Origin: Capitulum mitella
Lineage: Eukaryota; Arthropoda; Thecostraca; Pollicipedomorpha; Pollicipedidae
Assembly: GCA_030062745.1 (NCBI GenBank)
Contig: CP099842.1
Location: forward strand, 25,763,822-25,827,821
Reading direction: 5' to 3'
DNA: 64,000 bases
This document shows, one piece after another, positions 1,718-49,807 of the stretch. The position numbers were made by a program, and so were the translations under genes. The number at the start of each line of letters is the position of its first letter. Position 1 is the stretch's first letter. Under the pieces are notes generated by a model, which did not search any database, was not told where the DNA came from, and saw nothing but the letters and a program-made list of their open reading frames with translations.

Positions 1718-1771
<54 letters not shown>

Positions 1772-19700: not shown

Positions 19701-22700
19701 ACATTGGGAAACCGAAAATATGGGGAACGTTTATTGAAAATATCATTTTGTTTCACTCAAGATCCTGGAGTCAAATGCTCCAGCATAGAGCCGTCAAAAT
19801 TCATTACAAATAACGTTTCAAATGCCCGATGTGTCATGCATACTTCAGATAAGTAAATCAGCAAGTGCATCCGACTATAAGGAAACGCGCCAATGGCAAA
19901 GAGTTTCGTTTATTTATTTATTGCCCAGATACTGTACGTTCACGTGGCGAAGCTCGAAACCATAGGTAAATACTTAAGAAGAAAACAGCCCTCATTAAAA
20001 TAAACCCGCCTGAAGTGGCGTCATAAGCCGTTAACCCTATTCCCGGAGGGGTAAACAGTATAGTCGGTTTCCGGTGGGGGGGGGGGGATTTGGCACACTA
20101 AGATCTTGAGAACCACACATCCAGTTTTATAACAACAAACGGCAATCGATTTGACATGATGTAAACTAAATTTTCTAAAACAAAAGTTTCAAAATTTCGA
20201 AAGGGGCGGATACAAAGGGTCAGAAACGTTAAAACGGGGTACTTTTGCCTTACTATAACTTCATTGTTCATGGGCCGATTTTGATGTAATTAGCGTGCAT
20301 TGAGAGCTGATCGCAGGGACTTTTCCCTTTGACTCATAAATCTGGAATTTTGCGAGGATCCATAGGCCTTCACAAGATTTCAAAAATAGGGGGAATATTT
20401 TCTTTTACTTGAGTAACATAAATGCTTAAAACGTTCTTTTTTTATTTTTGCTGGTCATGGCATACCTAACAAGCACAAATCGTATCACACTGTTTGCATA
20501 ATGTTGGCATAGGCGGCGCCAGGGATATGAAAAGAAGGCGGACTGTCCTGACCTTATGTTCATCATTTGTCATCAGATTTCAGTTTCCGATTTTTGACCT
20601 TCATTGGCATCAAATGACCAGATGGTCAAAAGTCATATGTAATGACCTCGAATTCATTTCATAATGTTTGAAAATGTCTCCAGCCATATTAAAACAACAT
20701 ATCTTTAAAATTCCTCGTCGTGATATGGGGTATGCGCACGGACACTTAAGGTCATAGCTCCATGACCCGACCTGATATCGGCCCGAAACTGAGTGCACAA
20801 GTAGATAGGATCTTTCTACGTTACATATCTTCTGGATTCTGCGTTTGAAAATAGTCGTAAAAAGTATTAACGCAAACAAAACCTTGACTTATGACCTTGA
20901 CCTGACCTTGAGAAATAGCCTCATCACAACAAAAATGTTTTTAATGTTTGCCCAATCGCTGAACTATACACTCACACAAGGCTGTAAGTTCTGTCCTCAT
21001 CATGACAAACTGTTTTCCGCGGCTGTTTTTCTTTTGCCTTAAACAGTGGCAAAATGGTCTGAGGTGCCTCCCAGATGCCTGGCTCTGCCCCTGAGCAAAA
21101 CAAAATCATGGAAATTTTGGGATATTCCGTGAAAACGTAGGTAGGAAAAGTCACTAAGTTCCGTGAAGGTGCTTCAAATACCATGGAACTGACGAGCAAA
21201 AACCAGAGTTTGGGAGGATTCAGTTCTCCCCCACCCGGGAGTATGTTTAAATCATCTGCCACTCGCTCCTCACTCGCCAATCATCCCACAGAGGACTCGC
21301 GCGCACCAGGGCCTAGACGGCTGCAGGTCAGCGGCCATCCGGCACTCAAAGCCGACCAGCCAGTGGAACACAGAAGCTAACTGGCACTCACCAGAGCACA
21401 AACGGCTGCGGGTCAGCGGCCTGCCGATACCCAGAGCCAAGCAGTCAGTGGAGTTGAGAAGCCGCCTGATACTCACCAGAGAGTAGATGGCTGAGGGTCG
21501 GCGGCCAGCCGGCATTCGAAGGTGACGGAGGAGCCGTCTGCCGACTGCCGGATGACCGGTCTCTCGGTGAACGAGGGTTTGCCTTCCTCCGGCACCGGGG
21601 GCTCCTCGGCTGTCGGTCACAGATGCAGCGTCACAGTGCGCCACGGCGCGTTACAGCGTGTTGCAGCGTGTTGCAGCGTGTTACAGCGTGTTGCAGCGTC
21701 GCAGGGCGGCTCATCAGCGCTGAGGCGTCACGGGACACCATCGAGGATTGCCACCGTCTCAGGCGGCGTCATCGTACGTCATCGGCGGATTACGTCAGGG
21801 TAAAGGACCGGACTCACGCAACAGATGACATGACGCCCTCGGGGGAAGGCGATGCCGTTACGGGTTGCTAAACATTGTTGATCTCTCTTGTTCAAAACTC
21901 GGAGCGAATCTCAGTGAGGATGTGATTGGCAGGTATGGTTGGGAAGATATAATCCAGTAATAAATCAACATTGAACGCATTTCGTTTTGACTGGTTTGGA
22001 CTTATGTATCGCATTTCGATGTTTGGCGTCAGGGTTGCTCACTCTTTAAGATAGCAAGAAAACAGCGTACGGGAACGTGTGGCGCAGTTATGTGCAGTCA
22101 ATAGACAGTAGACCGGGCCGTAATATCTGTTATCTGCTAAACTTTGCCCAGTAAGAAATGTGTTGCTGACGTCAGTAATTTTCGTTGCTTGAATTGCTCG
22201 ACTGTGAACACAGTTTCTGCGCTTGGTGCATCAGCACACAGTTCTTAAAGATATTCCATGATCATATGCTGTTAAACCGGTTCTAGCACTGGAAAGCAAT
22301 TTTCATTCTGTGGTGACATGACACAACACAGAGTGGGACAGAAATGTACATAGTCTCAAATTAAAGTTTGACTACAAATGCATGTTTCGAGAACACACCC
22401 TAAAAAAACGGAAGTTGTCTTGTGGAATGGATGCCAAGAGCAACAGCGCCATAAACCAGTTAATGGCCTGGTAATCTTTATAAAGTACCACTCAATCTCA
22501 GAAATATTTTGATGAATCGTTACGTTGACATTACGATATGCTGATATATGACGATTCATAACCACGGTGATGATATGATGATTAATAACTACAAAATTAG
22601 AAATTCAAGCTGGAAATGAACTGTTTCAAAGAAACATTGCACATGTCTCCATTGGAAAGGTTCGCCTACCAAAAAGAGGAATAAGAAATAATCGGCGGAA

Positions 22701-25473
22701 AAAACGGCTTGCAAAAACATTGCAGAGTTCCACGAAAATGATTGACTTATGAAAACAGGATACACAGACACCTTCTCATCAATGTCGGTGAAGAAAAAAA
22801 AAGCATGAAAACGGGCCAAGTGATCTGAGATTTTCGGAGGCTGCCTTGTTTTGAGAAGTAACAAAATGTTCCGGCACTGATTTGCACGGAATCAGGATCA
22901 GAATCTGGTGTGTAAAGCGGTCCTCAACATTACGCTTAAACATAAAACATAAAACATGAAACATAAAACAACAATAGCGATATTGCACTGGCTATTGCCA
23001 GGATCTTCCTAGTTGGCATGAAACACATCGTTTACAGTTCTCGAAGTGCCTCTTGAATGTAGGACATTCATGTAGGCTGTACTTAGTTGTTTGGTTTGTT
23101 TTAATCTAATGAACTGTCGCCGTAACAGCTATGCGAACTTCGGAACATACAGGATCTCTATCCTTAAAACCTGTGAGGACGGCTCTGACCGGAAGGAGGC
23201 TGACATAATCTACCCAAAACAGAGACCGCACGCCAAAACACAATGCACAGACATCTTCCTGGCCCCTACTGCAATCACATTGCCGAACAAGTCTAGTGGA
23301 TGGCTCTGACTGAACAGGCACCCAACGACCTCTTAGCGGAGAACGACTAAAACACTTTCAAAACACATCAGTCTTCTCCGGAGCTTGCCATTATTCTAAG
23401 CTGCCTTCCCTCTGCTCACCCCTTTTCTAACACCTGAGTACGCTCTAGACCTGAACAACGGTGAGTGCTACTACAGCCTGCACTGCACCTAGGTCATTCT
23501 TCATATTCCTTTCTTGTGTACTGTCGATGAACAATAAGGGCATATTTGGTCAAAACGAAACCAGCGAAAAACGAGTCCAGAAAATTACAGTGAACTTTGG
23601 CGCCGCACGTATCAATGCTAACGTTTTTGGACAGTCAGTAATGCCAAGTAGCCAGCAGCTTCAAATGCCAATTTAATGCATGCTAATCATGGTAATGTAC
23701 TGAATCGCGCTCTTTTGTGTTTCTGTGTGATCTGTCGCGTGCTGCAGCGACATGACAGCAATGTCTGCGGTACCCAAGGCATATCTAACCCAAGACTAAC
23801 AATTCTGCCGGTGGTAAAAAAAAAACACAAAATGCTGCCTGTTATCCCACCCATTAAACTAGAGCAGAGTAAGCCCTGTCACGCATTTAATGGCAGACAT
23901 CTGTGAGTTTTTTCTCAGGCCTCTTTTCTGCGTCGAAAGCAAATTCGGGAGCAAAGCCGTCCAGATAGCATTCGAGCCCTCCTACCTAGATTCTGCTTCT
24001 GTGTATTCTGTCACATCCTCTGCACAGCAAACGCCTGAGCCGTGCTTTTGAAATATCTTGAAGAAGAGCCAGTGGTTCTTCATTCTTATACGATATGCAA
24101 CTATATCTTCACATCTTTCAGCACCGTTGCTGCACACCCCTCGCTAAGGGAATCGCGCTCTTCTCTCTCCGACAACATTTTCTTTTAAGTAGACCAGTAG
24201 GAACTCACCTTCTCGTCTTCTCTGTCCGTTGCCTGTATCAAAATGCTTTGAAGTGGTTTATCATGACAGACTATTAACTTAACACAAGGTTTCTTCTATT
24301 AACTTTTTTTTAAATTTTCCCCTATCTATTTAGTCACAATCAGTCTTTATGTACTGTTCGCGGGCGAATCAAAGGAAATTTACCCATACACACCGCTGTC
24401 AAAAGCTATGGAAGTACTTTAAAGCGCATTACTACATCTTCTTTTAAACTTGTTTCAGACGCACTAAGCATCTACGCCAATTAAGTTCAAGAAATTCAAT
24501 ACTTTAAAAACGTCATGGGTAAAGATATGCCATTAGTAAGATGATTTGCTTCTTGGATCAGTCTCTGGATAATCTAGTTAGGAGTTACACTATCATATCG
24601 TGACCCTAAAGTTAACTCCGCTGAAACAGAGCTCATCATCTTTGGCTCTCGCGCCAACAGTCGTTACCTGGATTTGACTGGTACTGGGTTATACGAGAGC
24701 GACTTTCATGGGAACCCAGCCATACAAGACTGACAGTCTACTTGAAAAAGCACATGGTACAGTCGCCTGTAAGTCTTCATAGACTCGTTCTACGGTACCC
24801 TCGTCGGGCTAACCCACTTGCACCATTACAGTCCACCGATTGTTATGTCAACGACAGTCAACGCCTCGTTCATCTGGTGTACTCGCAATTACGTGATAGT
24901 CTTTGCTAATGGTACACAAAAAGACCACAATTTTGCAGTCTGCGCCATTCATAAAAAAAACAAATTTCGTTGCATATGTGCGAGCTGATTGTGGTGATAT
25001 CGTGGATGTGTTTCAGTTTTTTTTTTGTACAGGAGGACGAAAAGTCCTCCTTTCTCAATTTTAGAGCGTCGCTTGTTTGCATGGCCTGTTTTTAAATGTT
25101 AAAAGGACACTTACAAGATAGCGGCTCGTGAGTTTTTACATGCACCTGAGTTCTCTTTCTTTGCATTTTGCTTTTAATGCGACCGAAGAATTCCTCATAA
25201 TAATCGTTTTCACGGCGCTATGGTGATGTAATATATGCATGCAAACATGCCAAAAAAGAGCCAACCTGGCACGGGGCGGCCGTGTTGTAGCATTGCACAA
25301 CACGAAAAGATTCCTCCGAAGTCCATTCTGGTGGCAAGGCCGGAGGCAAAATTATCCGCTGAACTGGAACTGCACTTCTGGGTAGCAGGTTCAGGGTACG
25401 AGCAACAAAGTCTGCTTAGCATGTGTTCTGAGTCCAAGGCCACGAATGCAAACCATCCGGGTAAAATAATACA

Positions 25474-25508
<35 letters not shown>

Positions 25509-25550
25509 CATATTATATTGTGTATTATAGCCTATAGCTTATATTATGGC

Positions 25551-25601
<51 letters not shown>

Positions 25602-28600
25602 AGCGAAGGTACTGTTAATATTTTGATGAAAGTTCACAAATCTCAGCATTAACTATTCAGTCATGTGCGTTACTGCCTACGAACAATTACACCGTTTGTC
25701 TCTGAACATTCATAGCGGAGCTAGGCCAATCGACCGAATATCTACCACACGAGTTCCACTACGCACTGCTGAGATCAATATAGAACAAACCGATGGGACA
25801 ACTTCCTAGGCGTGGGAGTAAAAGGGGTCGAGCTCCTCGGAATGTCTTTCTCAGGATGTCGGACTTGTATTGACTTACTGTCGAAATTGAGGCTGATGGT
25901 CGCATTGCTCTCGCCGAGTTCGTTCTTGGCCGTGACCTTGTATTTTCCGGCATCTTCCAGTGTGACGTCACGAATCTCCAGCGTGGCAGAATAGGCGTTC
26001 CCGTCTTTATCCACAGACATCTGCAAGCCACAAAAGATCTGGTGAACATAGGTGCTATCCAGCCGCACGCGTGGAAACGTCGAGTCCCGTTCATCAATCT
26101 GCTGACGGACTAGAAATGAAGCGGCTGTAGAAAAGGGAGATTGTGGCAGAGATGAGTTCTTTCCGTGCGCGTGCCCGTGTACCCTGGAACATCCCGTGGT
26201 CACCCTCACAGGTTTCACAGACACCTGGAACCTAAATTCGGTTAATGTGAGTTAATCTGGCCCCCAAAGTTTGAAGCTCGCACTTTGCGCAGGAGTGGCA
26301 GCTAGAACAATTTTTGAGAGGAATGTCAGGATAATGTGCCATCCTTTCAGGCGTCTCATTCCGTTTGAAACTTCAGACAGATCATTTGGTCCACCATTTT
26401 ACCTAGTGGCAATCAGGACTGATGGTTGTCAGAAAGAAGATCGCATACCATCCTAAACTTGTGATGTTTTTGGACTGCCAATAGCAGAAGTAAGACACTG
26501 AATGCGTAATGCAACGTAAGAAGGCAATACGCAACCAGGTGTTTGATTGTTATCGGATATATGAATTCATAACATCAATACAGAAGGTAGCTGTATTTTG
26601 CAAAGGTAAAACGGTGACTGAAGGACGGAAGGCGTAGCAAATGGGGATGGGGGTGGGAGATGGGTATGGTTCATTTCTTTAGAACGCTTACGGTTTGTTT
26701 CAGGGACCTCTGATTCCAAGAAGGTAACTGAAGTCTAACTCGGTGATCACCGAACAGCACTCCAGTAACCACTCAGACAAAATTTGCATAAAAAAAAACA
26801 CGATAATGACATTCCAGCAGAACACGCACGCGGTACAGACCGTGGATGAAGATCCTGGAAAGAGGAAGGATGCTGAGTAACAACTTTTGTTTTATTTTTG
26901 GAATATTCTGCCGTGGGAACCATGACGTAAGCTTAAAAGAAGTGGTGTCTAATCCCCATGGAGTTCCTCAATTTCGGGGGAGTCTCCAGCTATGGTGGAG
27001 ATGGATAAGTTATATATTACCTAGGTGGATTAACAAAATAGTGCGAAAGAGCGACAAATGTATCCATTTGCAAGCCTGGAATGGTTTCAGTGTGATTTGT
27101 CACCTTTGCTTTTGAGAGGTAATGAAGTGAATGAAGGTCTAAATAGCAACCATATACCACATAAATCGACAATAGCCAACTAGTCGAAACACCAGGAACT
27201 GCGCAAATTTAGTAAACTGTTTTTTTTCCTCTCCGAAATTCCGTAAATAAAACAGCCGACTTATCACTGTGAAAGAGGAATCAACGTTGAGCCACTGTCT
27301 CCGATTGGCCCTCATTGACGGGCCGCTGATATTTCCAGTGTTTCTCAAAGCAAGCAAAGACCTCAAAATCAGTTCCAGCATAGTCCAACGTAACAGAGAA
27401 ACGGGGTTCAAGATAAGATGATGTCGCAATGAAGAAGATTGAAACATACTAAACAAAACTGAGGAAAAAGGAAAAAGAGGCTACGGAACCTTTTGATATT
27501 TCGCATTGTGTTCAAGTTTTGAATGCACCGCTTATTCCAAAATAGTTTGCGATCATTGCTTGGTAATAGTAGTACTGGATTAGGTACAAATAGCCTCAAC
27601 ACTTAAATAAAACACTTTTATTAACTTTGTTTGGGATTTCGGAGTTCTTTGCAAGTGACGCTTCTAACAAGATGCACTAAACACATGCCCATTTTTAGTC
27701 TCTTGAACCGTCATGCGTAAACGCATTTCAGACATCAAACACCATTTTGAGCCCTAATTCGTCAAAATCGGCCAGCAGATAAAGGATCTCAGGGTTGGAA
27801 CTGAAGTGTGAGTGCAGAAACTCTACGAGCCTTGCAGAGCAATGCTGTACATGAAGGTAGAACACATCATAGGCTTACACAAACAATGAACCTCTCTCTG
27901 TGTTATGCTAAATCGGAGGGGTGTAGGGTGATATAACATTGTCAGGTGTTGCCTGTCAGGTGTTGAAAGCATATCTGAATACCTGCCATAGCATGATGTT
28001 CTATCATGCTAATTCTGTACTATGCACCGTCCTGACTGGTTGTAGGTCCCAAGTCAAATGAAAATATTAACAGCAACTCCAGATCATGAGTAAAGAAGGC
28101 ACTGGCCTTGACACAGGCAGAAATTGGCACTGCTGGACGGAATACCTTTGCTCCATCCCGGTGCCTGGAGAGTGTGGGACGCGGCTGGGTACTGACCTTG
28201 TGCCGGGCGGAGTCCTGCACCTGTACTCCTTCCCGGTACCAGGAGAGTGTGGGGCGGGGGTCGGCCAGCACGCGGCACTCGAACGTCAGCCGTCTCCCAT
28301 CCGGAGCCTGCTGGATGCTCGGCTTCTTGACGAACGTCGGCGCCAGGCCGTCCACCTGCCTGTGAACGCGGCGAGAGCGTCAGACTTCAGACACACGATT
28401 CAAGCACAGACTTCGGACGCAGAGGCCGACGACAGGCCGCAGACGGCAAACAGCAGACGGCAGACGACGAGACACACATACAAGAGAAGCAAACTGCACA
28501 AGGCAGACGGCAGTGAAGCAGAATTGGCACAAAAGAGACACTCAAAAGACACAGATAAGAGATGGATTACAGAAGACAGACGGACAAGTCGCAAGTGGCG

Positions 28601-34600: not shown

Positions 34601-35316
34601 AGGGATTCGCTCCTCATCTTGGGTCGGCTCAGGGGCCCTGTGACGCTTTTGGCAGTCTCAGGGGCAATCTGCCGTGTTGGGCATTGTTGTGGTCCCAGGG
34701 GCCCTTTGCAGGCTTCAGGGGCCCCTCTATGCATCTCAGGGATCATCTAGCCCTCCTACAGGTCCCCCTGACTGCATCAAGAGCCCGTTTCGTTTTCACA
34801 GAGACCCTGTGAAGTTCATACGGGACCCCTTTGGGGCCCCTTTTGGGAGTGATAGGGCCCTTTTTCAGGCCTCGGGGGGAGTGATCGCCCCCATCATCTC
34901 CCCTGGATTCGCGCCTGGTTTGCTATCGCCTCCATCACGGGAAGGGGGTGCGAAACCTCCAGGCACGTAGCCAGGATTGTCCCCTGGGGTGGGCCAAATG
35001 TCAATTTTTGTCATATGCTGCCGGCGTATAGCGAAATTTATAGGAAAAAACACCAATTTTATGCAACTGTTAAATATGCAGCTCATATTTAACCAACAGG
35101 GATACATATCAGTTTTTGCCTTTGCAACATATACATGATCACTAACCCATCTGCGTGCGAAATCGCTATGTTTCTAGTGTAGACCGCTTGGCTTAGAGGG
35201 GGCATGGCCGCCATGACTACGTGGGGCCCCTTGGCTACGTCATTGGAAACCCCCTCATGTGACGAGAGTTAATGTTGCCCAGTTTTTTTTGTTTACCAAG
35301 AAAATCAATTAAGTGT

Positions 35317-35379
<63 letters not shown>

Positions 35380-38300: not shown

Positions 38301-41300
38301 ATTTAGTGACCAACCCGCTTGGACTGTCTGCTGGTATGCCTCTATTATCCTAGTTTTCCCGTACTCGGCTGTCTGTGGACTCTGTCCAAGATGCCGCAGT
38401 ACATTCCACACAGAATAATGAGCCATGGACTTAGGATGAGGAAGTACGGATCAGATCAATAGGTGTTATAATGTGGAGTCTACAGCATAGCGATAGACTG
38501 AACGATTTCCCAGCCTTTGAATAAGACTGGTAAGGCACGATTAGGCAGCACAACGGGGGAGAGTTTAGGGTGATCAAAAAGTAGTCTTTGCTGCCACTAG
38601 TTCAGATTTCAGACAGCAGGTGTTTGCATGCCCGACGATTTCAGGCTTCCTCTGCGTCTAAACGGCTAAAGCGACCAGATAATTTGGCGATATGTGTGAC
38701 ACTGACAGAGCGACAGCGAAACGCCAACCAGTAGCCTACAACATTCAAACGATGCTTCTCACCGCACCCATCCTATCCGGGGCATCGACATCAGGTTTCG
38801 GGACAGGTGCGACCCGTTGGCTGAACCCTGACCCCGCGGCACCGTTCGTCTGGATCTGGGGATAATTCTGGTGCGGCACGGAGCCAACTGGGACGACGAC
38901 GTCTGCAACAGACACTGCCGCCACGGCATGCCGGGAGGCAGGCTCGTGGCGACTCCAGCTCACCGTTCGCCAACAAACGAACATCTGGTCCAGGCGGCGA
39001 ACCGAGCATTTCGTCGGAACTCATGTTTAGGAGCTGAGATGTGATTCCTCTAATCCATGATGGCTGTAAACGTAGGCTAAGGCCAGCGATACATCACAGG
39101 CTGACGTATTTTTGTTTGGAATTCCGCAGTTCTGGTTCGTATTCTGATCCTTACATGCAAGCGGTAGTCATTTACGGTAATCCAAGCAAGACGAAAAATA
39201 TTGATGGGTTGTCTAGATGCGATTAACGGCGAGCAGACTTGCACTACAAAATCTTTTCAAAGCCCGTAACGTGAGTAGCGCTGAACTTCTTCTACGTTTA
39301 AATGGCCAGGATATTCCAGGCGTCTGCGTTAAATGTTTTGATGACTCAGCAAGTCTTACACCTGAACATAAGCCACGGCGTTGAAAGACGAACTCTGAAA
39401 CATAATCTAAAGATTCCGAAACTCAATCCGAAGACCGAAACACAAGCTGAATGTGTTGCGGTGCGGTGGGCGCGGGTTTTGTGGCAAGGGAATGAGCTTG
39501 CTCTCGTAAGCACTCCGGCAAAGATTCGGTGAAGTGTATTACAATAGCCATTAGAAAATCAACCATTTCCATCAGCCAAACGCAACGGAATGCAAATCTT
39601 TTCCGACGTTTGATGCAGTCCGTCTGTGGTATGCGGTCTCCAGCTTGAAACCAGGAAGGAACCTTCGCACTCCTCTGAGACCGCGCTCTCATCCATGAGG
39701 ACCATGCTCGAAAATCCTCCCCCTTCCGACGGCTTCTCTCACAGTTCTGTCACTTGGAGGACCCGTCACAGACTCGCCTAGCCTGCCTGCCTCCCGGACC
39801 ACCTGAACCAGCGCTCGACCCAGCGTCGGGCGGGCGCGGCCTCCGCGGCCCTCGCGGGGCTCCGCGGGCGGCGCCACTCACTCGTCCTCCATGGATGCCG
39901 GCATCGTGATCCGGCGCTGGGCGCGCCCGAGGTCTCGCTGCTCGGACGATCACCAGGCGAGCGGCAGACGCATAACGCGGAGGTCACCGGTCACGAGAGG
40001 TCAGCGGCAGCCGGGCGCCGGAGGTCACCCACCAGTCACCCACCGACTGACTCGGGCCGGCCGGCGGCGCCGCCTCGCCACCGCCGCCGGCGCAGGTATT
40101 TATAAATTAGATACATGCTTCCAGGACGCGCTGCCAAGAGGTGCCGTGAGGCGGCCGGCGGCCGGCGGCCGGCGCCGAGTCGGCTCGGCGCAGGCCGGCG
40201 ACCCCTGGACGGACAGCGGCAGGGTTGGCGGCCCCTGGACAGCGCAGCAGCAGGGAAGTAACGACTAGACAGTAGAACGCCTGGCTCGGCGAACTCTGGG
40301 AAGGGGAGTAACAGAGTTGATAGCCCCTAGACAGAGAAATAGCCTTGGTCAGCGACCCCGGGGAGGGCAAAGAGCCACGGGTCGGAGGCCCCTGGACAAC
40401 TGAGCAACCGCGAGACGGCAAACCCAACAAGGGAAAGCAGTTACGTATCGGTGGCCGCTGAACAGGAAACAGCACCCTGGACGGCGCAGCACCTGGATAT
40501 GCTCCCTTTGGGGGGGAGGCCTGTCAGTCGTGAACCCGCGAGTCAGGTCTCGGACAGATAGGCCTGAGGGACTGGTTGCGCCTTCCTGGGGTAACGATAT
40601 TTGGAAAACGGCTCTGCAGTATGATGCTCTGCCAATAGTGCACCTCATCTTTTGGCCAAAATAGCACACTTAAGTTAGCACTGACGGAAGTCATTGTTGC
40701 TGATCGTGCACAGCCTGCGCACCACACTCTTTGGATTACAAGTTATACGAAGTTGATTTCCAGTGCGTACGCGTTGGAAGCCGATCAGTTCAAACCAACA
40801 GCTTGGTTTTATGAGCATAACTAGCCAGATATAATTCCTTTCGTTGCTTCAATATCCTCGCCAATGCAAAGCTAGGTTATGATAGGAATCAGTTTCAAAG
40901 TGTGTTTGAAGCGAACACGGTTAAAAGGCTAGACATCTAGAGCACATGTATTGAGCATACATTCCGTGACTGGCCTAGAGGAAACACATTTTTGCAACGG
41001 AGTCACAAATCTGACGCTTTTAGTGCTATTAGCTCCCGTAAATGTTGTGGCACACCCAGAGGTCAGAGGAGCAAGGCTTTGGCACCGCAACAATGTTCAA
41101 GAAACTTGACACATTCTGGCTCGGGTCTGGCCTAGAACCACACCTGTTTCTGATGCAATCGATGATTTTTCACGTTCTTCACGACATCTAAAGGCGTGCC
41201 ACTCTCGTTGGCACTGCCGGTAGCATTTTCTATTTTTTAACTTAAAATGTAACCCAACCGAAGGAGACTTGGTTAAAATAATAAAAAGAAATCTTGCGAA

Positions 41301-47300: not shown

Positions 47301-49770
47301 CTAATATTCCCCCAAAACTACGGGACAAAGCAACTCTGGACCAGCCCTGCCGATAACCTGCAATTTCGGGGCTCCTGGAAACTTGAGAAGACCCCGGAAA
47401 CCTACAGAGCTGCAGAAGTAAAAGCGACATCAGTTTTGATTTTGTGAAATATTGTGCCAAAATCATGCAAGTTCCTTAACGATAAACGATGCCTGGCTGC
47501 TTACTTCCGATGCTAGCTTAATGCAAATAAAAATCTTGCAGATGTAATGCTTTCGTCTAGTGTCCTAAATTAGTATTCGGTTATTTACATCATATACAAT
47601 AAAATCTCCTCCGGTGTCTTGGCACTGAAAACAGAACATTAAGCACATCCTCAGGAACATCCCATAAACGATGCTATCATGTATGATACACCAAGGTTAC
47701 GTGATGAAAGGTTTATATATTAGTGCTATTGATGCATGGATGCATGAAGTTTTAAATCCACCGCTACAAGATCATGCATTGTAATGTGAAGTCATGGTGC
47801 TTTCCAAACGACTTGGAACCCTTCAGTCGTGAAAACTAGGGCAGACCATCCATTCATTTGAAATATATACATATATATAATATATATATAATTATATGTA
47901 TATATGTATATATTATATATATATATATGTAAGTATATATATATAATATAAATGCAATACAGGCAGATCATCCAGACATTTTTTTATGTCGGGTTAGGAA
48001 GGTAAGTAATCTAAACCTGTGCATTTAATTAACACATTTCGAAAGAAGCAAATGTCAAATTCATTACTTCTCCTCACAATGCGCACATTTTCTGACTGGC
48101 CTGACCATCTCATGCTACTGATCTTTGCCCAACAAGGCTTACATGTCCTCAAGGGTTATAAAACAAATGGCACACCTCCTTCGACACACTAAAATGTGCT
48201 GTCAACAGTAATGCTCAGTTATGCAACAAAACAAAAAGCGCACCTTGACAAGATTTACTCATCCGAAGTCATAAGCCTTTTGAGAAATGTTTAAGGTGCG
48301 TGACCTTATCGAGAAATATATCCCCGGGGCCTCATAGGAACAAAACACGCTATCAATGGCCAGCTGTGACCATACCCAGTGTGCGGACGGAGGCAGACGA
48401 GCGAAATGCAAATTGCTTGGCAATGCAGATAGGCAACAGTGAAGCCTACACCTTCGACAATACGGGAACAGTTTCGTGTTAATGCACATGGGATCACAAT
48501 GAGACGAAATGCTTATTCCGGTGTCAAAAAGTGGGACATCTACGATATTTGGCAAAATGAAAAAATGAAACCTACGGCATATCTGAGCTGCTGAATCAAG
48601 GCGAAACTCACCTTACAACGGGTTTGTCGGCGGCTGAAATGGAACAATAGCGAGTCATCGAAACTTAAAAAAACACCACACCATTCTTAAAAGGTTACTG
48701 AACCGTAAAAAATTTTGGGATTGTCAAAGTTTGTCGCACATAAAACAGATGCTGCACTGGGTCAAAAAAATTCAGCACGTAAACAAAACAACTCATGTCA
48801 TGCTGAGCAGGCATTGGTATAGACGCTGCGACCATGGATGTAAGGGTCCTTTCTTTATCCTTTCTTCCATGAGGCAGAAAGGATAGTGTCCCTACCAACT
48901 TTGTGGAATGCTAAATTAAGTCCTATGGTTTTTCAGAAAGACAAAATTTGGAAACGCTTCTAAGAGGATGACTGTCACGCATTCTACGATGCGTGCAAAA
49001 TTGTTATGTTTTGAAATCATTTGGATGATGTGTTGCGTCGTTTGTTGTTTTCAAACCGTCCAGTCCGTAGCACTAAAGTAAACGCTATTTAGAACCAATA
49101 AGCTTAAATTAGAGACAGTGCAGATAGCAGTGCCAGCAACTGACTAATGAGCAATGCGAAGAGCTGGCAAATGTTGGTAGTCTATTCAAACCGGAAATCA
49201 GTTGCAGCTGAGATAAATGCTGACGATGACCTCTCTGCCCCGTTCACCGCCACAGCTACTCACGGTTGAAGCTGAAGTTGAATTTAACAGTGAGCAGCAC
49301 ATTTCGTTGACCGTCGTGGCTAGTCACGATTAGGGCTGAGGTTAATGTTAATAGTGACCTGCTCCCCTCCTATCTGCCGTGGCTACTCACGGTTGAAGCT
49401 GAGACCGGTTTCGGCGGCGACGTGTCCACCCTGCTGCCTGACGTGACTACTCACGGTTGAAGCTGAGGTGGATGCTGACCGTGACCCGTCCGCGCTTGTT
49501 CACGGCTGTGATCCGGTACAGGCCGGCGTCGGCCGCCACCACATCCTCCAGCCGCAGTGCCTCGTACGACAGGTGCCGCTCGATCTGGCGGGAGACGATG
49601 GTAGCGCGGCCGCCCGGCACCAGCGGCAGCTCGCCGCGGTACCACTGCACGCCGGCGGCCGGCCGAGCGTGCAGCAGGCACTCGAGCAGCAGCCGCCGGC
49701 CGTCCGCCTCCTGACGCAGCTGGGGACGGCCGGCGAAGCTCGGCGCAAGCTCCTCGTCCGTGTCCGCCAT
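967..49770 (-). CDS. bt: Projectin (bent/twitchin family) gene, 5' half, multi-exon
   Basis: Gene-level entry covering 29 exons that chain in phase on the minus strand; individual exons are listed separately. Projectin is a giant elastic protein of the arthropod sarcomere that links Z-disc and thick filament and ends in a kinase. Seen here: a start Met, eight I-set Ig domains with the usual Cys/Trp/Asp-x-x-x-Tyr core, a V/P-rich linker between Ig1 and Ig2, then roughly 700 residues rich in Pro, Glu, Lys and Asp. Eight Ig domains followed by a PEVK-like region is the established projectin N-terminus; Ig linkers such as GKAPSF and domain ends such as LNF/LNIE are typical of projectin and twitchin. 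The Fn3/Ig core and kinase are not in the window, so the gene is cut at the left edge. A different titin-like protein is possible but less likely. Three small frame breaks occur (see exons 8, 10 and 17). Confidence 0.85.
1592..2122 (-). CDS. bt: Projectin exon 28 with a Glu-Pro dipeptide repeat
   Basis: 531 bases, 177 codons, phase 0/0, acceptor CCACTGCTCAG and donor AAG/GTAACG. It begins [12 protein letters not shown], continues through a Ser/Glu-rich stretch ([14 protein letters not shown]) and the conserved-looking block [20 protein letters not shown]. It then has about a dozen Glu-Pro dipeptides encoded by a GGAGCC hexanucleotide repeat (about 1,720-1,790), and ends [15 protein letters not shown]-type spring with a pure EP run is expected to be flexible and extended. 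The opposite strand is also open here, which is a by-product of the GC-rich repeat. Confidence 0.85.
1666..1793 (-). repeat. Coding hexanucleotide microsatellite (GGAGCC)n
   Basis: On the plus strand the run reads GGCTCC repeats with a few interruptions (CTCTGG, and a break at about 1,690-1,715). It lies wholly inside exon 28 and encodes Glu-Pro dipeptides, so copy-number change would alter spring length by two residues per unit without shifting the frame. Confidence 0.85.
2724..2772. repeat. GGC/TGC trinucleotide repeat
   Basis: A GGC run changing into a TGC run, in the intron just downstream of exon 27 on the coding strand. Confidence 0.7.
2883..2921 (-). CDS. bt: Projectin exon 27 (39-base microexon)
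   Basis: Acceptor CTCTCCCGACAG, 39 bases, donor CAG/GTAAAC, phase 0/0. It encodes [13 protein letters not shown], a basic segment. Good pyrimidine tract and phase on both sides. Confidence 0.65.
3111..3269 (-). CDS. bt: Projectin exon 26
   Basis: 159 bases, phase 0/0, acceptor CTGCTTCGAAG and donor TGG/GTAGGA. It encodes 53 residues: [38 protein letters not shown] and a tail ending [11 protein letters not shown]. The sequence is complex and non-repetitive, unlike the neighbouring spring segments, suggesting a binding or structured motif. An open frame extends upstream of the acceptor, so a slightly longer exon cannot be excluded. Confidence 0.75.
4326..4355 (-). CDS. bt: Projectin exon 25 (30-base microexon)
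   Basis: Acceptor GCTTTTTCCAG, 30 bases, donor CAG/GTATGT, phase 0/0. It encodes [10 protein letters not shown]. The call rests on strong splice sites, phase and acidic content. Confidence 0.65.
5589..5654 (-). CDS. bt: Projectin exon 24
   Basis: 66 bases, phase 0/0, acceptor TCTTTGTCCAG and donor TCG/GTAAAT. It encodes [20 protein letters not shown] then DS. A closer AG (CTCTGCCAG) exists but is out of phase. Confidence 0.7.
6416..6490 (-). CDS. bt: Projectin exon 23
   Basis: 75 bases, phase 0/0, acceptor ATATTAACAG and donor GAG/GTATGT. It encodes [20 protein letters not shown] then VKEQE. The EKVELK motif resembles elements of titin and projectin springs. Confidence 0.85.
6610..6677. repeat. 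GA/GAAA-rich microsatellite
   Basis: Purine-rich stretch of GAGA and GAAAGA repeats in the intron upstream of exon 23. Confidence 0.8.
7591..7656 (-). CDS. bt: Projectin exon 22
   Basis: 66 bases, read in phase 0 from acceptor TTGTAGAG to donor AAG/GTACAT. It encodes [20 protein letters not shown] then EK, more helix-like than its neighbours. An alternative acceptor two bases upstream (TTGTAG) would break the frame, so the downstream AG is chosen. Confidence 0.7.
8710..8817 (-). CDS. bt: Projectin exon 21 (K/A/D-rich)
   Basis: 108 bases, phase 0/0, acceptor GTCCATCTAG and donor CAG/GTAAAG. It encodes [20 protein letters not shown] then [16 protein letters not shown], a typical PEVK-like segment. 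Confidence 0.85.
9831..10067 (-). CDS. bt: Projectin exon 20 (Arg/Gly/Pro-rich)
   Basis: 237 bases, 79 codons, phase 0/0, acceptor GTCCGCCCAG and donor CAG/GTACAC. The 3' part reads plausibly ([15 protein letters not shown], then [22 protein letters not shown]). The 5' part is very Arg-rich, in a segment so GC-rich that several frames are open. The phase fit supports the call, but the start of the exon is uncertain. Confidence 0.55.
10492..10572 (-). CDS. bt: Projectin exon 19 (acidic)
   Basis: 81 bases, phase 0/0, acceptor TTTTGCTAG and donor AAG/GTACTC. It encodes [20 protein letters not shown] followed by SDIPLSK. It is acidic, giving alternating charge with the basic neighbours. Confidence 0.8.
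11156..11227 (-). CDS. bt: Projectin exon 18
   Basis: 72 bases, phase 0/0, acceptor CGGCATGCAG and donor AAG/GTACGA. It encodes [20 protein letters not shown] and then QPAK: polar, proline-rich and disordered. A run of 12 G at 11,113-11,124 lies just inside the following intron. Confidence 0.8.
11732..12105. repeat. Diverged tandem duplication (about 193 bp x 2) with an internal hairpin
   Basis: Copy A (11,732-11,917) and copy B (11,925-12,105) match along their length, both opening AGGCTCTTGCCGCG and ending CATTAGCT. Each contains a near-perfect palindrome of the form GGTGG-ATGA-CCACC. They lie in the intron just downstream of PEVK exon 17. Confidence 0.8.
12242..12833 (-). CDS. bt: Projectin exon 17 (main PEVK-like exon), one-base frame break
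   Basis: 592 bases from acceptor GTTTTTCAAAG to donor TCG/GTGAGA. It encodes about 197 residues of extremely Lys/Pro/Glu/Asp-rich sequence with irregular repeats of the form [17 protein letters not shown]. This is the classic composition of an elastic, disordered titin-type spring. Near 12,430-12,445 (TPEPKGRP) the frame changes by one base. Beyond it the sensible frame is [20 protein letters not shown] and then a Gln/Pro/Ala-rich tail, whereas the first frame stops at 12,363-12,365. Counting one extra base restores phase 0 at the donor. The donor choice in the GC-rich tail is less certain than the rest. Confidence 0.8.
13281..13337 (-). CDS. bt: Projectin exon 16 (K/E-rich)
   Basis: 57 bases, phase 0 at both ends, acceptor ATGTTCTGCAG and donor GAG/GTAAGC. 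It encodes [19 protein letters not shown], a charged, proline-containing segment. This is the first of the symmetric cassette exons of the PEVK-like region. Confidence 0.85.
13549..13571 (-). CDS. bt: Projectin exon 15 (23-base microexon)
   Basis: Acceptor GTCTTTTCAG, 23 bases, donor CTG/GTAAGT. It takes the one base left by exon 14 to make Glu, then encodes KKAVEKL and ends in phase 0. The charged content and exact phase fit mark it as the entry to the spring region. It is too short to detect by ORF length; the call rests on strong splice signals and phase on both sides. Confidence 0.75.
13919..14085 (-). CDS. bt: Projectin exon 14 (Ig8, second half)
   Basis: 167 bases from acceptor CACGCTGCAG to donor AACG/GTAGGT. 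It completes the Arg codon from exon 13, then encodes [18 protein letters not shown] through the F-strand motif [15 protein letters not shown] (Tyr871; the usual Asp is Ser) and ends SCQLTVN plus one base. This is the last Ig before the spring region. Eight Ig domains before a PEVK-type region is the projectin count. Confidence 0.92.
14356..14624 (-). CDS. bt: Projectin exon 13 (Ig7 end, Ig8 start)
   Basis: 269 bases from acceptor CGTCCTGCAG to donor ACAG/GTCAGT. It begins in phase 0 with [11 protein letters not shown], continues [20 protein letters not shown] (Asp762, Tyr766; no second Cys) and an acidic/basic linker [19 protein letters not shown]. It then opens Ig8 with Cys821 and Trp834 (EIIWY), ending inside the Arg codon. 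Like exon 10, it carries the end of one Ig and the start of the next. Confidence 0.92.
14951..15012. repeat. GA-rich microsatellite with poly-G
   Basis: GAGAGTGAGAG-type repeat ending in a G run, adjacent to the old end of the 52-bp minisatellite. Confidence 0.7.
15120..16144 (-). repeat. 52-bp minisatellite made of the exon 12 3' end plus splice donor
   Basis: About 20 head-to-tail units. On the coding strand each unit is the last 31 bases of exon 12 (ending GTGTCTCAG) followed by 21 intron bases starting GTGAGT. Most units keep the perfect donor CAG/GTGAGT. Unit length is 52 (one unit 51), so the frame rotates between units. The unit nearest the exon is the true exon end; the most diverged units are at 15,120-15,330, furthest from the exon. 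A block of four distinguishable units at about 15,463-15,644 recurs about 468 bases later at about 15,930-16,111, showing a later block duplication. Confidence 0.95.
16114..16286 (-). CDS. bt: Projectin exon 12 (Ig7, first half); its 3' end seeds a minisatellite
   Basis: 173 bases from acceptor GTGCACCAG to donor CAG/GTGAGT. It completes a Val codon with exon 11, then encodes 57 residues: [17 protein letters not shown], Cys716 (RVACVN), Trp724 (DISWLHERR) and the end SVKVEQVSQ in phase 0. The last 31 bases of the exon plus 21 bases of intron form the 52-base unit repeated about 20 times through 15,120-16,113. The exon boundary is fixed by the phase match to exon 13 ([13 protein letters not shown]). 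Confidence 0.9.
16536..16626 (-). CDS. bt: Projectin exon 11 (Ig6, second half)
   Basis: 91 bases from acceptor CTTTTTTAG to donor GAAG/GTAACC. It starts in phase 0 and leaves one base. It encodes residues 659-688: the F-strand motif [16 protein letters not shown] (Asp664, Tyr668, Cys670) and the domain end ANLTLNIE. The remaining G joins TG of exon 12 to give Val. Confidence 0.9.
17178..17496 (-). CDS. bt: Projectin exon 10 (Ig5 end, Ig6 start), one-base frame break
   Basis: 319 bases, acceptor CCGCCCAG and donor CGG/GTACGG. It begins in phase 0 right after ELR with [20 protein letters not shown] (Asp558, Tyr562, Cys564), finishes Ig5 at LALNIE, passes an EPEP-PPAPPAA linker and starts Ig6. 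At about 17,350-17,360 ([17 protein letters not shown]) the frame shifts: one base is extra relative to an in-phase exon, matching a length of 3n+1. Ig6 lacks the usual B-strand Cys (Val, in LMEVRVRS) but keeps its Trp (AAWWHGT). The domain resumes cleanly and ends HTLHLRIR in phase 0. The break is in very GC-rich sequence. Confidence 0.85.
18016..18251 (-). CDS. bt: Projectin exon 9 (Ig5, first half)
   Basis: 236 bases from acceptor CGTTACAG to donor AGG/GTGAGT. Two bases complete an Ala codon with exon 8. It encodes residues 475-552: linker [20 protein letters not shown]-strand Cys508, C-strand Trp520 ([11 protein letters not shown]), and strands up to [10 protein letters not shown]. It ends in phase 0. 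No duplication of its 3' end is seen in the following intron, unlike exons 1, 3, 5 and 12. Confidence 0.9.
18636..18791 (-). CDS. bt: Projectin exon 8 (Ig4, second half)
   Basis: The clear coding part runs from the Met codon at 18,789 ([20 protein letters not shown]) through the F-strand motif [14 protein letters not shown] (Asp449, Tyr453, Cys455) to LNFQ and donor CAAG/GTAACA. By comparison with the exon 3/4 join, the acceptor should lie directly before this Met, but the sequence there is TTTAGCG-ATG. The nearest AG leaves two extra bases, and the other good acceptor (TTTCCGCAG, 18,807) is also two bases out of phase. Either one base is missing or two are extra in this sequence, or a splice site I did not identify is used. 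The coding content itself is secure. Confidence 0.75.
18976..19144 (-). CDS. bt: Projectin exon 7 (Ig4, first half)
   Basis: 169 bases from acceptor CTCCCCAG to donor AAG/GTCAGC. It encodes residues 367-422, starting [20 protein letters not shown], a form highly typical of projectin and twitchin Ig domains, with Cys392 and Trp404 (EITWYHGT). It ends in phase 0 (RMASK). The next exon begins two bases out of phase, discussed under exon 8. Confidence 0.88.
19479..19685 (-). CDS. bt: Projectin exon 6 (Ig3, second half, and linker)
   Basis: 207 bases from acceptor TCTCTTTCAG to donor AAA/GTGAGG. The first base completes the core Trp started in exon 5 ([12 protein letters not shown]). It encodes residues 298-365 with the F-strand motif [14 protein letters not shown] (Asp335, Tyr339), the domain end [12 protein letters not shown] and the split Lys codon that leads into exon 7. 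A piggyBac-like element (20,031-21,250) lies in the intron before it. Confidence 0.9.
20031..21250 (+). mobile_element. piggyBac-like non-autonomous element, copy 1
   Basis: About 1.22 kb bounded by TTAA. The left end reads TTAACCCTATTCCCGG; the right end, read in reverse, is TTAAACATACTCCCGGG, so there are imperfect terminal inverted repeats. A second copy starts at 62,796 in the same orientation and matches along its length. No transposase-like ORF is seen. TTAA targets and CCCTA-type ends are characteristic of piggyBac; the assignment is from ends only. It lies in the intron between projectin exons 5 and 6. Confidence 0.75.
21290..21520 (-). repeat. 85-bp triplication of exon 5 3' end plus donor
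   Basis: The true exon end encodes [17 protein letters not shown]. Copy 2 reads [17 protein letters not shown] and copy 3 [17 protein letters not shown] on the coding strand. Exon-end positions 21,477, 21,392 and 21,307 are spaced exactly 85 bases. Copy 2 keeps a consensus donor; copy 3 has lost it. Confidence 0.9.
21477..21609 (-). CDS. bt: Projectin exon 5 (Ig3, first half)
   Basis: 133 bases. The acceptor is GTGACCGACAG; two bases complete a Thr codon with exon 4, and the exon stops after the first two bases of Trp297 at a strong CTG/GTGAGT donor. It encodes [18 protein letters not shown], then the B-strand Cys285, ending at the conserved core Trp. Two further decayed copies of the last 40 or so bases plus the donor follow at exact 85-base spacing (donor-equivalent positions 21,392 and 21,307). 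Without the splice the frame closes quickly, and the full domain reads correctly only when joined to exon 6. Confidence 0.88.
21640..21705. repeat. 10-11 bp tandem repeat (CAGCGTGTTG)
   Basis: Four to six units of CAGCGTGTTR, just upstream of the exon 5 acceptor on the coding strand, where it reads as ACGCTGYAAC repeats. Confidence 0.75.
24600..24690 (+). mobile_element. Fragment of a second non-LTR reverse transcriptase
   Basis: A short open stretch reads [20 protein letters not shown], matching the palm-to-thumb motif ([13 protein letters not shown]) of CR1/Jockey-type elements. The flanking 24,700-24,900 looks like eroded RT C-terminal sequence but is not readable with confidence. Confidence 0.45.
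25472..25600. repeat. Two TA-rich microsatellites
   Basis: TA runs at about 25,472-25,510 and 25,553-25,600 separated by an AT-rich spacer, in the intron after exon 4. Confidence 0.85.
25879..26020 (-). CDS. bt: Projectin exon 4 (Ig2, second half)
   Basis: 142 bases from acceptor GGCTTGCAG to donor GACA/GTAAGT; it starts in phase 0 and leaves one base. It encodes residues 206-252, beginning [16 protein letters not shown], with the F-strand motif [14 protein letters not shown] (Asp228, Tyr232) and the domain end ATISLNFD. The second Cys position is Thr. Its join to exon 3 (RHK/MSVDK) falls at the same place in the fold as the join between exons 7 and 8. Confidence 0.9.
28140..28267 (-). repeat. 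75-bp partial duplication of exon 3 3' part
   Basis: On the coding strand the exon text [14 protein letters not shown] recurs just after the true donor as [14 protein letters not shown]; the two blocks (28,215-28,267 and 28,140-28,192) are offset by 75 bases. The copy's splice signal is decayed (GTATTC). Confidence 0.8.
28197..28355 (-). CDS. bt: Projectin exon 3 (Ig2, first half)
   Basis: 159 bases, phase 0 at both ends, acceptor TTCACAGGCAG and donor AAG/GTCAGT. It encodes residues 153-205, starting [16 protein letters not shown], with the B-strand Cys179 and the C-strand Trp191 (LSWYREG). The domain is finished by exon 4. A second donor-like site (ACAG/GTGCAG) lies inside the exon near 28,220. 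The last part of the exon is duplicated in decayed form just inside the intron (28,140-28,196). A roughly 450-base pyrimidine-rich stretch precedes the acceptor on the coding strand. Confidence 0.88.
28375..28830 (-). repeat. Pyrimidine-rich low-complexity tract upstream of the Ig2 acceptor
   Basis: The plus strand is a run of CAGACG/GACAGA-like words. On the coding strand it is an unusually long CT/GTCTG-rich region ending about 20 bases before the exon 3 acceptor. Confidence 0.65.
29036..29172. repeat. AT-rich TA/TATATT repeat region
   Basis: Imperfect TATATA runs over about 135 bases in the intron between exons 2 and 3. Confidence 0.85.
33040..34890. repeat. Degenerate [13 protein letters not shown] array
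   Basis: About 1.85 kb in which CAGGGGCCCCT, CTCAGGGG and GGGCCCT words recur every 20-50 bases with strong sequence drift. A better preserved duplication lies at about 34,292-34,400 and 34,460-34,545, sharing CCTACAGGCGGCGGCAAGGG. Long open frames on the plus strand (for example 34,148-34,750) are by-products of the GC-rich repeat. Confidence 0.7.
34963..35247. mobile_element. Possible MITE with CGTAGCCA ends
   Basis: The left end reads GGCACGTAGCCAGGATTG and the right end, reversed, CAATGACGTAGCCAAGGG, suggesting short terminal inverted repeats around about 285 bases. GTAGCCAGG-type ends are common on invertebrate DNA-element fragments. No ORF is seen. The class is not resolved. Confidence 0.4.
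35317..35375. repeat. (TA)n microsatellite, about 29 units
   Basis: An uninterrupted TA dinucleotide run in the long intron between exons 2 and 3. Confidence 0.9.
38763..38902 (-). CDS. bt: Projectin exon 2 (linker between Ig1 and Ig2)
   Basis: A 140-base exon between acceptor TGTTGCAG and donor GCG/GTGAGA. It begins with two bases that complete the split codon left by exon 1 and ends in phase 0, exactly what exon 3 needs; its reading frame has no stop. It encodes 46 whole codons, a Val/Pro/Gln/Asn-rich linker beginning [14 protein letters not shown] and ending DAPDRMGA, with no recognisable fold. Position, phase on both sides and splice signals support it, but it sits alone between two 10-kb introns and I recognise no homologue. 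Other frames of the same stretch are open too, but they do not join in phase. Confidence 0.65.
39780..40190. promoter_or_regulatory. GC-rich island inside the exon 1-2 intron, possible internal promoter
   Basis: Very CpG-rich. On the minus strand a TATA-like TTTATAAATA (about 40,096-40,105) lies about 190 bases above an ATG codon and the donor-like GACGA/GTGAGT at about 39,867-39,874. The resulting short exon would end in phase 2, which does not join exon 2 or 3 in frame. It is therefore not annotated as coding. Confidence 0.25.
40190..40500. repeat. Degenerate minisatellite (GGCGACCCCTGGACAG)
   Basis: Words such as GGCGACCCCTGGAC, GGCGGCCCCTGGACAG and GGAGGCCCCTGGACAA recur every 30-90 bases. 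It adjoins a GC-rich island at 39,780-40,190. Confidence 0.55.
41560..43625 (+). mobile_element. Decayed non-LTR retrotransposon (CR1/Jockey-like reverse transcriptase)
   Basis: A broken reverse-transcriptase frame. 42,208-42,798 carries [52 protein letters not shown] and [13 protein letters not shown], the ordered motifs of a non-LTR RT. The catalytic box continues in another frame at 42,762 as [12 protein letters not shown], followed by [17 protein letters not shown]. Thumb and C-terminal parts follow ([14 protein letters not shown] at about 43,095, and [17 protein letters not shown] at about 43,430-43,490). At least two frame changes separate the pieces, so it is dead. Upstream 41,560-42,200 may be the eroded 5' ORF, but no endonuclease was recognised. 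It sits in the intron between exons 1 and 2, antisense to projectin. Confidence 0.8.
46580..46960. promoter_or_regulatory. GC-rich CpG island, function unknown
   Basis: About 380 bases of dense CpG and GGCGCGCC words in the exon 1-2 intron. Frames on both strands are open only because of composition. It could be an intronic promoter or enhancer; no core element recognised. Confidence 0.25.
47015..47245. repeat. Minisatellite (GGCTGGCGCAAACCAG) and 20-bp direct repeat
   Basis: Units GGCTGGCGCAAACCAGRCACG recur at 35-53-base spacing at 47,030-47,130. Next to it GACCGCGAAATGCATTAGGA occurs twice in tandem (47,202-47,242). It adjoins the GC island at 46,580-46,960. Confidence 0.75.
47864..47952. 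repeat. TA-rich microsatellite
   Basis: TATATA/TATGTA runs over about 90 bases in the intron between exons 1 and 2. Confidence 0.85.
49199..49520 (-). repeat. About 64-bp tandem repeat of exon 1 3' end plus donor (about 5 copies)
   Basis: On the coding strand the exon end CTCAGCTTCAACC/GTGAGTAG recurs with its junction at 49,455 (true), 49,391, 49,329, 49,264 and about 49,200, spacings 62-65 bases. Copies 2 and 4 keep GTGAGTAG, copy 3 has GTGACTAG and the last has lost it. Divergence is higher than in the exon 12 array. Confidence 0.9.
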
Positions 49771-49807
49771 CGCGGCCCGACGGAGGCGCCGGAGCTCGGT
49801 CGGTGGC
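49455..49807 (-). CDS. bt: Projectin exon 1 (start codon, Ig1)
   Basis: The exon runs from an AG acceptor (TTTTCCCCAG) to a GTGAGT donor inside the last Asn/Arg codon. Coding starts at the ATG whose first base is 49,770, in context CCGCGATGG; the 37 bases above it are then 5' UTR. No in-frame stop separates the acceptor from the ATG, so an upstream start is not strictly excluded. It encodes residues 1-105: an acidic start [12 protein letters not shown] and a complete Ig domain with Cys31, Trp43 and the Asp81/Tyr85 pair. The second disulphide Cys is replaced by Thr (YRITAV), as in many twitchin Ig domains. It is the only Ig here encoded by a single exon. The 3' end is duplicated about five times into the next intron (49,199-49,520). 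Confidence 0.85.

What the first reader, a model, noticed from the sequence alone, without database searches (positions are those of the whole stretch)
21290..49520. Same process at four Ig exons: tandem duplication of exon 3' end into the intron
Exons 1 (64 bp x about 5), 3 (75 bp, one decayed copy), 5 (85 bp x 3) and 12 (52 bp x about 20) each have their own, unrelated sequence duplicated in the same place and direction: exon tail, usually with donor, repeated into the start of the intron. In every case except exon 3 the unit spans the exon-intron boundary. Unit sequence, length and age all differ, so these are independent events in one gene. Exons without the feature (4, 6-11, 13, 14) serve as internal controls. 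I know of no named class for this; it could reflect a local replication or repair bias at splice junctions, or selection for redundant donors in a giant, highly transcribed gene.
Basis: partly seen in the sequence, partly recalled or inferred. Interest (0 to 1): 0.85.

Follow-up and report, generated by a model that had tools for sequence, protein, structure and literature searches.

The report
Tandem repeats spanning muscle-gene splice donors
In a barnacle-like giant muscle gene, four exon ends are repeated in tandem into the following intron, three of them with their splice signal; this looks like ordinary repeat birth that selection tolerates at that spot, but finding it four times in one gene is unusual and worth a genome-wide count.

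Summary
The minus strand carries the N-terminal Ig region of a twitchin/projectin-type gene; the relative with the highest identity is a barnacle, Pollicipes (81%). At 4 of 15 modelled donors (exons 1, 3, 5, 12) the exon's own tail recurs just inside the intron: 64 bp x5, 75 bp x2, 85 bp x3, 52 bp x20. The other 11 donors and 13 scored acceptors look like background. The exon 12 array lies outside the stated coordinates. The four units are unrelated.

The excess at donors depends on the null (P 6e-5 to 0.06 with 15 donors), was posed after the fact, and donor versus acceptor is P=0.057. "Redundant donors" is not supported: 0 of 21 downstream donor copies keep the frame. A close precedent exists, the human ABCA7 intron 18 repeat that includes the exon 18 donor; boundary repeats have been surveyed in human genes.

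Best reading: recurrent minisatellite birth, tolerated because the exon-proximal donor survives. Most interesting detail: the exon 12 array and the coding exon share a recent history, implying exchange. No genome-wide test was possible.

The parts
49455..49807 (-). Exon 1: one Ig domain (I-set); donor ACC|GTGAGT, phase 1; possible start [12 protein letters not shown]
   Evidence: exon model; Pfam I-set E 1.5e-9; 42-46% identical to the N-terminal Ig domain of other arthropod homologues
49201..49496 (-). Exon 1 array, period 64 bp, 5 copies including the exon copy (42 nt of exon); 3 of 4 intronic copies keep a GT donor
48612..48633 (-). Likely 22-nt microexon joining exon 1 (phase 1) to exon 3 (phase 2): PADKPVV
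   Evidence: only hit of a search filtered for the expected linker; the joined frame reads like arthropod linkers
39882..39904 (-). Exon 2, alternative start exon MPASMEDE, donor GA|GTGAGT; no array
   Evidence: matches Pollicipes MPASMEDDQADGLAPTF
28197..28359 (-). Exon 3 (first half of an Ig domain), donor AAG|GTCAGT
   Evidence: Amphibalanus and Pollicipes proteins join at this residue
28144..28264 (-). Exon 3 duplication, period 75 bp (68 nt of exon), one decayed intronic copy without a donor
21477..21609 (-). Exon 5, donor CTG|GTGAGT, phase 2
21295..21526 (-). Exon 5 array, period 85 bp, 3 copies (50 nt of exon); intronic copies have GTGAGT and GTGCGC
16114..16286 (-). Exon 12, donor CAG|GTGAGT, phase 0
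   Evidence: Pollicipes junction VEQVSQ|GEYA
15101..16149 (-). Exon 12 array, 52-bp unit x20 (36 nt of exon), higher-order structure; 16 of 19 intronic copies keep GT, 15 keep GTGAGT
13919..28196 (-). Control junctions in this stretch: donors of exons 4, 6-11, 13, 14 show no array
   Evidence: scores 6.5-11.5

Best explanation
These are intronic minisatellites born by separate short tandem duplications that happened to start in the last 36-68 bp of an exon and run across the donor into the intron. They survive because the original donor, next to the exon, can still be used, so the message is unchanged; duplications inside exons would be purged. The gene lies in a GC-rich region with many minisatellites. 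Exons 1, 3 and 5 carry old, decayed copies. Exon 12 carries a younger array that expanded by unequal exchange and grew mainly near its exon end, with the exon's coding tail taking part in the exchange. Shown: the arrays, their unrelatedness, the higher-order structure, and that no downstream donor gives an intact frame. Inferred: use of the first donor in this species, neutrality, and the mutational route (slippage or unequal exchange).
For: Four unrelated units. Minisatellite-rich background: of the 11 arrays entered in the placement test, 7 are not at a modelled donor. The four array-bearing donors have high local GC (0.63-0.65). 0 of 21 downstream donor copies (16 exon 12, 2 exon 5, 3 exon 1) give an intact frame. 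Predicted Pollicipes proteins join exons 3-4, 5-6 and 12-13, and a predicted Amphibalanus protein joins exons 3-4, exactly at the first-donor residue. The exon 12 array has classic minisatellite features: variant copies c1-c5 recur almost unchanged as c10-c14, and the last copy, c20, is the most diverged. Copies c19 and c20 keep T in a codon where the three closest relatives' residues (I, V, V) require T, while the exon and c2-c18 have A: the exon and nearer copies share a later history. A homologue on an unnamed contig (P0138) shows no repeat within about 126 nt after its exon 12 donor, while the same test finds the 52-bp repeat in this window, so the array is not conserved.
Against: Arrays hit donors more often than expected: circular shifts P 8e-5 to 0.0025; placement P 6e-5 to 0.06 with 15 donors, down to 5e-6 with the earlier 13-donor model, no GC matching and exon overlap capped at 70 bp. 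So a real donor bias is not excluded. High GC alone does not bring an array: exons 10 (0.69) and 13 (0.61) have none. In the exon 12 array the exon-derived 27 nt differ less between copies (9.1%) than the last 19 nt (31.3%), and this holds without c20 or without c19 and c20; plain neutral decay does not predict it. Two CpGs in that last part, few independent block changes, or templating from the exon could explain it. Copy c6, in the middle, is also diverged, so the age gradient is not clean. No transcript data for this species.
Confidence: 0.68

Rival explanations
1. There is a mutational bias at donors: replication, R-loop or repair events at exon 3' ends in highly transcribed genes seed tandem duplications there more often than elsewhere.
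For: 4 of 15 donors against about 0.5-0.65 expected under circular shift; 0 of 13 acceptors; GC-matched placements with exon overlap capped at 70 bp expect 0.44, P 0.0006.
Against: With GC matched and no cap, 1.61 expected and P 0.059. Donor versus acceptor P 0.057. The hypothesis came from the same data. Differential tolerance at donors and acceptors could give the same picture.
Confidence: 0.17
2. The arrays act on splicing: repeated exon tails and donors bind U1 or splicing factors and tune inclusion of the next exon, as the length of the ABCA7 repeat does.
For: ABCA7 precedent: skipping of exon 19 rises with repeat length (PMC5954066 passages). 16 of 19 exon 12 intronic copies keep GT; the exon-derived part is the best conserved part of the unit.
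Against: Donor hexamers are not better kept than their neighbours. The exon 3 copy has no donor. In the homologue P0138 the exon 12 intron starts without the repeat, so the array is not conserved. In ABCA7, retention of a repeat unit did not change with repeat length.
Confidence: 0.1
3. Selection for spare donors that back up the true donor.
For: Several copies keep a perfect GTGAGT.
Against: 0 of 21 downstream donors leaves an intact reading frame; units of 64, 85 and 52 bp are not multiples of 3.
Confidence: 0.02
4. The introns themselves arose by tandem duplication of exon sequence with a proto-splice site (Rogers model), and the repeats are footprints.
For: Known route of intron gain, sometimes with duplications across a junction (PMC4974935, PMC2891723).
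Against: Two homologues on unnamed contigs appear to read through the exon 12 donor into intron sequence at the same residue (P0138, P0143), and P0138 lacks the repeat there, so that intron is probably older than the array. The repeats do not reach the acceptors.
Confidence: 0.03

Closest known systems
Human ABCA7 intron 18 VNTR (PMC5954066)
   Same: Minisatellite at the start of an intron that includes the exon's own donor; 23.7 copies in the reference against 20 here; using the donor one unit on retains one unit and shifts the frame
   Different: 25-bp unit whose first two bases are the donor GT; here units of 52-85 bp also carry 36-68 nt of coding exon tail, and it happened at four exons of one gene
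Internal tandem repeats at exon-intron boundaries in human segmental duplications (PMC2812944)
   Same: Tandem repeats placed at exon-intron boundaries, changing or risking splicing
   Different: That survey compared recent human paralogs (162 boundary alignments before manual inspection, 27 accepted intron modifications); here one arthropod muscle gene
[quoted passage not shown] PMC4974935, PMC2891723)
   Same: Duplication crossing a splice junction
   Different: No new intron is apparent here; the existing donor and intron remain

Membership tests
Donor-including intronic minisatellite (ABCA7 type) | Tandem array begins at or across the donor and runs into the intron | tested here: met
   exons 1, 5, 12 by position, exon 3 by period only
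Donor-including intronic minisatellite (ABCA7 type) | Repeat copies carry a donor-like GT | tested here: met
   16 of 19 (exon 12), 3 of 4 (exon 1), 2 of 2 (exon 5) intronic copies; not met for exon 3 (0 of 1)
Donor-including intronic minisatellite (ABCA7 type) | Copy number varies between individuals | not testable with these tools
   one assembly only
Donor-including intronic minisatellite (ABCA7 type) | Array length changes splicing | not testable with these tools
   no RNA data
Twitchin/projectin (unc-22) gene | Serial I-set Ig domains matching arthropod twitchin-type proteins, in phase across exons | tested here: met
   names in the hit list vary (twitchin, unc-22, disorganized muscle protein 1-like, hypothetical)
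Twitchin/projectin (unc-22) gene | FnIII repeats and kinase domain of the full protein | not tested
   not looked for; they would lie beyond the N-terminal part studied
Intron gain by tandem duplication | Intron absent before the duplication | tested here: inconclusive
   exon 12 intron probably present without the repeat in P0138; exons 1, 3, 5 not tested
Mutually exclusive exon array (Dscam type) | Each copy is a complete in-frame exon | tested here: not met
   units 52, 64, 85 bp are not multiples of 3; only exon tails are copied

The most novel reading that the evidence does not exclude
Exon 3' ends with their donors are preferred nurseries of intronic minisatellites, because duplications there are both born more often and tolerated; the coding exon then stays in exchange with its own intronic array, so the array is a fossil record of, and a possible source of changes to, the protein sequence at the exon's end.
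Probability: 0.2. Interest if true: 0.65.

Novelty: new member of a known kind. Interest (0 to 1): 0.4.

Why it matters
If junction-spanning duplications are enriched at donors genome-wide, exon tails would be a predictable source of new minisatellites, of cryptic donors and of coding change by exchange with the array. The ABCA7 case already links such a repeat to disease risk (PMC5954066), so a rule for where they arise would be useful. As it stands it is four instances in one gene.

Tried and rejected
A scan of viral contigs for exon 12 confirmed no relative (27 pattern matches, none held up). Rfam: no match at gathering scores. PDB search only showed generic Ig similarity.

Considered and dropped: redundant donors; intron gain; mutually exclusive exons (unit lengths); one shared repeat family at all four exons; donor-specific conservation within the exon 12 array; exon-part conservation as a general rule (exon 5 copies 1-2: 0.64 identical in the exon part, 0.66 in the rest; the third exon 5 copy shows 0.74-0.76 against 0.21-0.34 but its last part may run past the array end, so I did not use it).

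Limits of my statistics: repeats of period 12 or less were masked, including a 10-bp array 36 nt upstream of the exon 5 acceptor (21646-21699), which does not reach the junction. The list of 11 arrays was merged by hand: the coding PEVK array (12439-12742) was left out; 9932-10097 (score 17) and 40222-40413 (score 19) are weak; 51413-51846 and 51840-52057 were counted as two; a one-point cluster at 46821 was dropped. Fisher used 0 of 14 acceptors although one was never scored, so I cite (4 of 14 against 0 of 13). The exon 12 copy comparison counts 12 distinct copies; three inserted columns of c19 were dropped.

Literature searches that gave nothing to the point: no paper; 15 listed, none with the term 'barnacle genome'; listing only. 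PMC4039745 was seen as outline and abstract: a C. elegans minisatellite is over-represented near alternative splicing regions.

Full report
What the locus is. The minus strand of the window encodes Ig domains joined by introns whose phases fit, apart from a 1-nt frameshift inside exon 10. The translated exons match arthropod muscle Ig proteins: by E-value the top hit is an insect (Ranatra, 61% over the whole query), by identity the top is the barnacle Pollicipes pollicipes (81% over 319 residues; 120 of 202 hits were listed). An Amphibalanus amphitrite protein named Twitchin matches exons 3-4. Hit names vary (twitchin, unc-22, disorganized muscle protein 1-like, hypothetical); 'twitchin/projectin' rests on these, and 'barnacle' on the two cirripede matches. 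Pfam calls the domains I-set. Two short exons were added: a start exon MPASMEDE at 39882-39904 that joins exon 3 in frame as in Pollicipes, and a 22-nt microexon at 48612-48633 that joins exon 1 to exon 3 with a linker like those of other arthropods. The microexon came from a search filtered for the expected linker, so it is an inference.

Check of the observation. A diagonal self-comparison finds the four arrays; TRF finds three of them. So 4 of 15 donors have the feature. The stated coordinates leave out the exon 12 array (15101-16149).

Is it more than chance? The repeats themselves are certain. Their placement is the question. Sliding all 15 donors round the window, 4 or more hits occur in 32, 11, 4 and 1 of 12640 shifts for thresholds 18, 20, 22 and 24 (the unshifted position is one of these). 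Placing the 11 arrays at random without regard to GC expects 0.73 donors hit (P for 4 or more 0.0037), or 0.24 (P 6e-5) if exon overlap is capped at 70 bp. Matching GC expects 1.61 (P 0.059); with GC matched and exon overlap capped at 150, 100 or 70 bp, as coding constraint would do, P is 0.012, 0.0024 and 0.0006. The earlier 13-donor model gave 5e-6 to 0.042 over the same settings, and per-donor GC matching 0.048. The answer thus moves with the null; the question was posed after seeing the data and rests on one gene. Donors against acceptors is 4 of 14 against 0 of 13, P 0.057. I read this as suggestive, not shown.

Are the events independent? Among the four arrays, only exon 12 and exon 5 match at all, over 15-17 nt at E 0.12-0.42. 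Periods are 64, 75, 85 and 52 bp. Exon 12 is the youngest (many copies identical over the exon part), the others are decayed. Four separate events is the simplest reading.

Inside the exon 12 array. Of 19 intronic copies 13 are identical to the exon over its last 27 nt, 15 keep GTGAGT exactly and 16 keep GT. Variant copies c1-c5 recur almost unchanged as c10-c14, and TRF also reports a five-unit period of 259 bp: marks of unequal exchange. The last copy, c20, is the most diverged, but c6 in the middle is diverged too. In one codon the exon and c2-c18 read AAG (c11 with one base deleted there), while c19 and c20 read ATG; the three closest relatives have I (Pollicipes) or V (P0138, P0143), all needing T at that base. 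More distant arthropods vary at this position, so a parallel change is not excluded. The simplest reading is that the distal copies keep the older state and the exon shares a later history with the nearer copies: either the array was re-seeded from the exon, or the exon was overwritten from the array. Among the 12 distinct intronic copies the exon-derived part differs by 9.1%, the donor hexamer by 10.6%, the remaining 19 nt by 31.3% (column tests P 0.003 and 0.02); without c20 the values are 6.4, 8.5 and 29.8%. This is not donor-specific. Templating from the exon, CpGs in the remainder (2 against 0) or one block replacement counted many times could explain it. Exon 5 does not show the contrast between its first two copies.

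Does it work as spare donors? No. Using a downstream donor copy adds a stop (20) or a frameshift (1) in 21 of 21 cases (exon 12: 16, exon 5: 2, exon 1: 3). In predicted Pollicipes proteins the joins are exactly at the first-donor residues for exons 3-4, 5-6 and 12-13, and in a predicted Amphibalanus protein for exons 3-4. The Pollicipes protein used for exons 12-13 (P0094) is a partly mis-joined model: it runs from exon 13 into an exon 3-like sequence. The homologue P0138, from an unnamed contig, appears to read through its exon 12 donor for 42 residues; a codon-compatibility test finds no copy of its exon tail there (longest run 11 bases), while the same test finds this window's 52-bp repeat with a run of 32. 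P0143 reads only 10 residues past the donor, too short to tell. So the array is not conserved, and the intron is probably older than the array.

Known precedents. ABCA7 intron 18 in humans has a 25-bp repeat whose first two bases are the exon 18 donor; one unit can be retained, and longer arrays raise skipping of exon 19, while unit retention did not depend on length (PMC5954066, passages). A survey of human duplicated genes found repeats at exon-intron boundaries (PMC2812944, passages). Duplications crossing junctions are a known route to new introns (PMC4974935 passages; PMC2891723 outline and section 10). A Daphnia tandem-repeat survey does not use the word splice in its main text (PMC3152781, passages). 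My searches for junction-spanning minisatellites (capped listings, open-licence papers only, titles and abstract starts seen) brought up ABCA7 as the one clear single-gene case.

Verdict. A real, well-described set of four exon-tail minisatellites in one muscle gene, three with donors in their copies, of a kind already known from human genes. The recurrence in one gene, and the signs of exchange between a coding exon and its intronic array, are the parts worth following.

Noticed in passing
window 17178-17496, near 17360: Exon 10 carries a 1-nt frameshift relative to its homologues; either an assembly indel or a real lesion.
   Followed up: partly
window 12375-12914: Lys/Pro/Glu-rich PEVK-like coding repeats (period 15/30 bp), again with an apparent frame change near 12430.
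   Followed up: no
window 21646-21699: A 10-bp tandem repeat (5.4 copies) sits 36 nt upstream of the exon 5 acceptor; not junction-spanning, but on the other side of an exon that also has a donor array.
   Followed up: no
window 51413-52057, 34287-34540, 46989-47242, 11732-12105: Other minisatellites or local duplications not at any modelled exon; the region is repeat-rich.
   Followed up: partly
window 1544-2149 (minus): Open frame with a Pro-Glu repeat (EPEPEP) that may belong to a further exon of the same gene.
   Followed up: no
window 42199-42798 (plus): Open frame that looks like a reverse transcriptase fragment (recalled resemblance, not searched).
   Followed up: no
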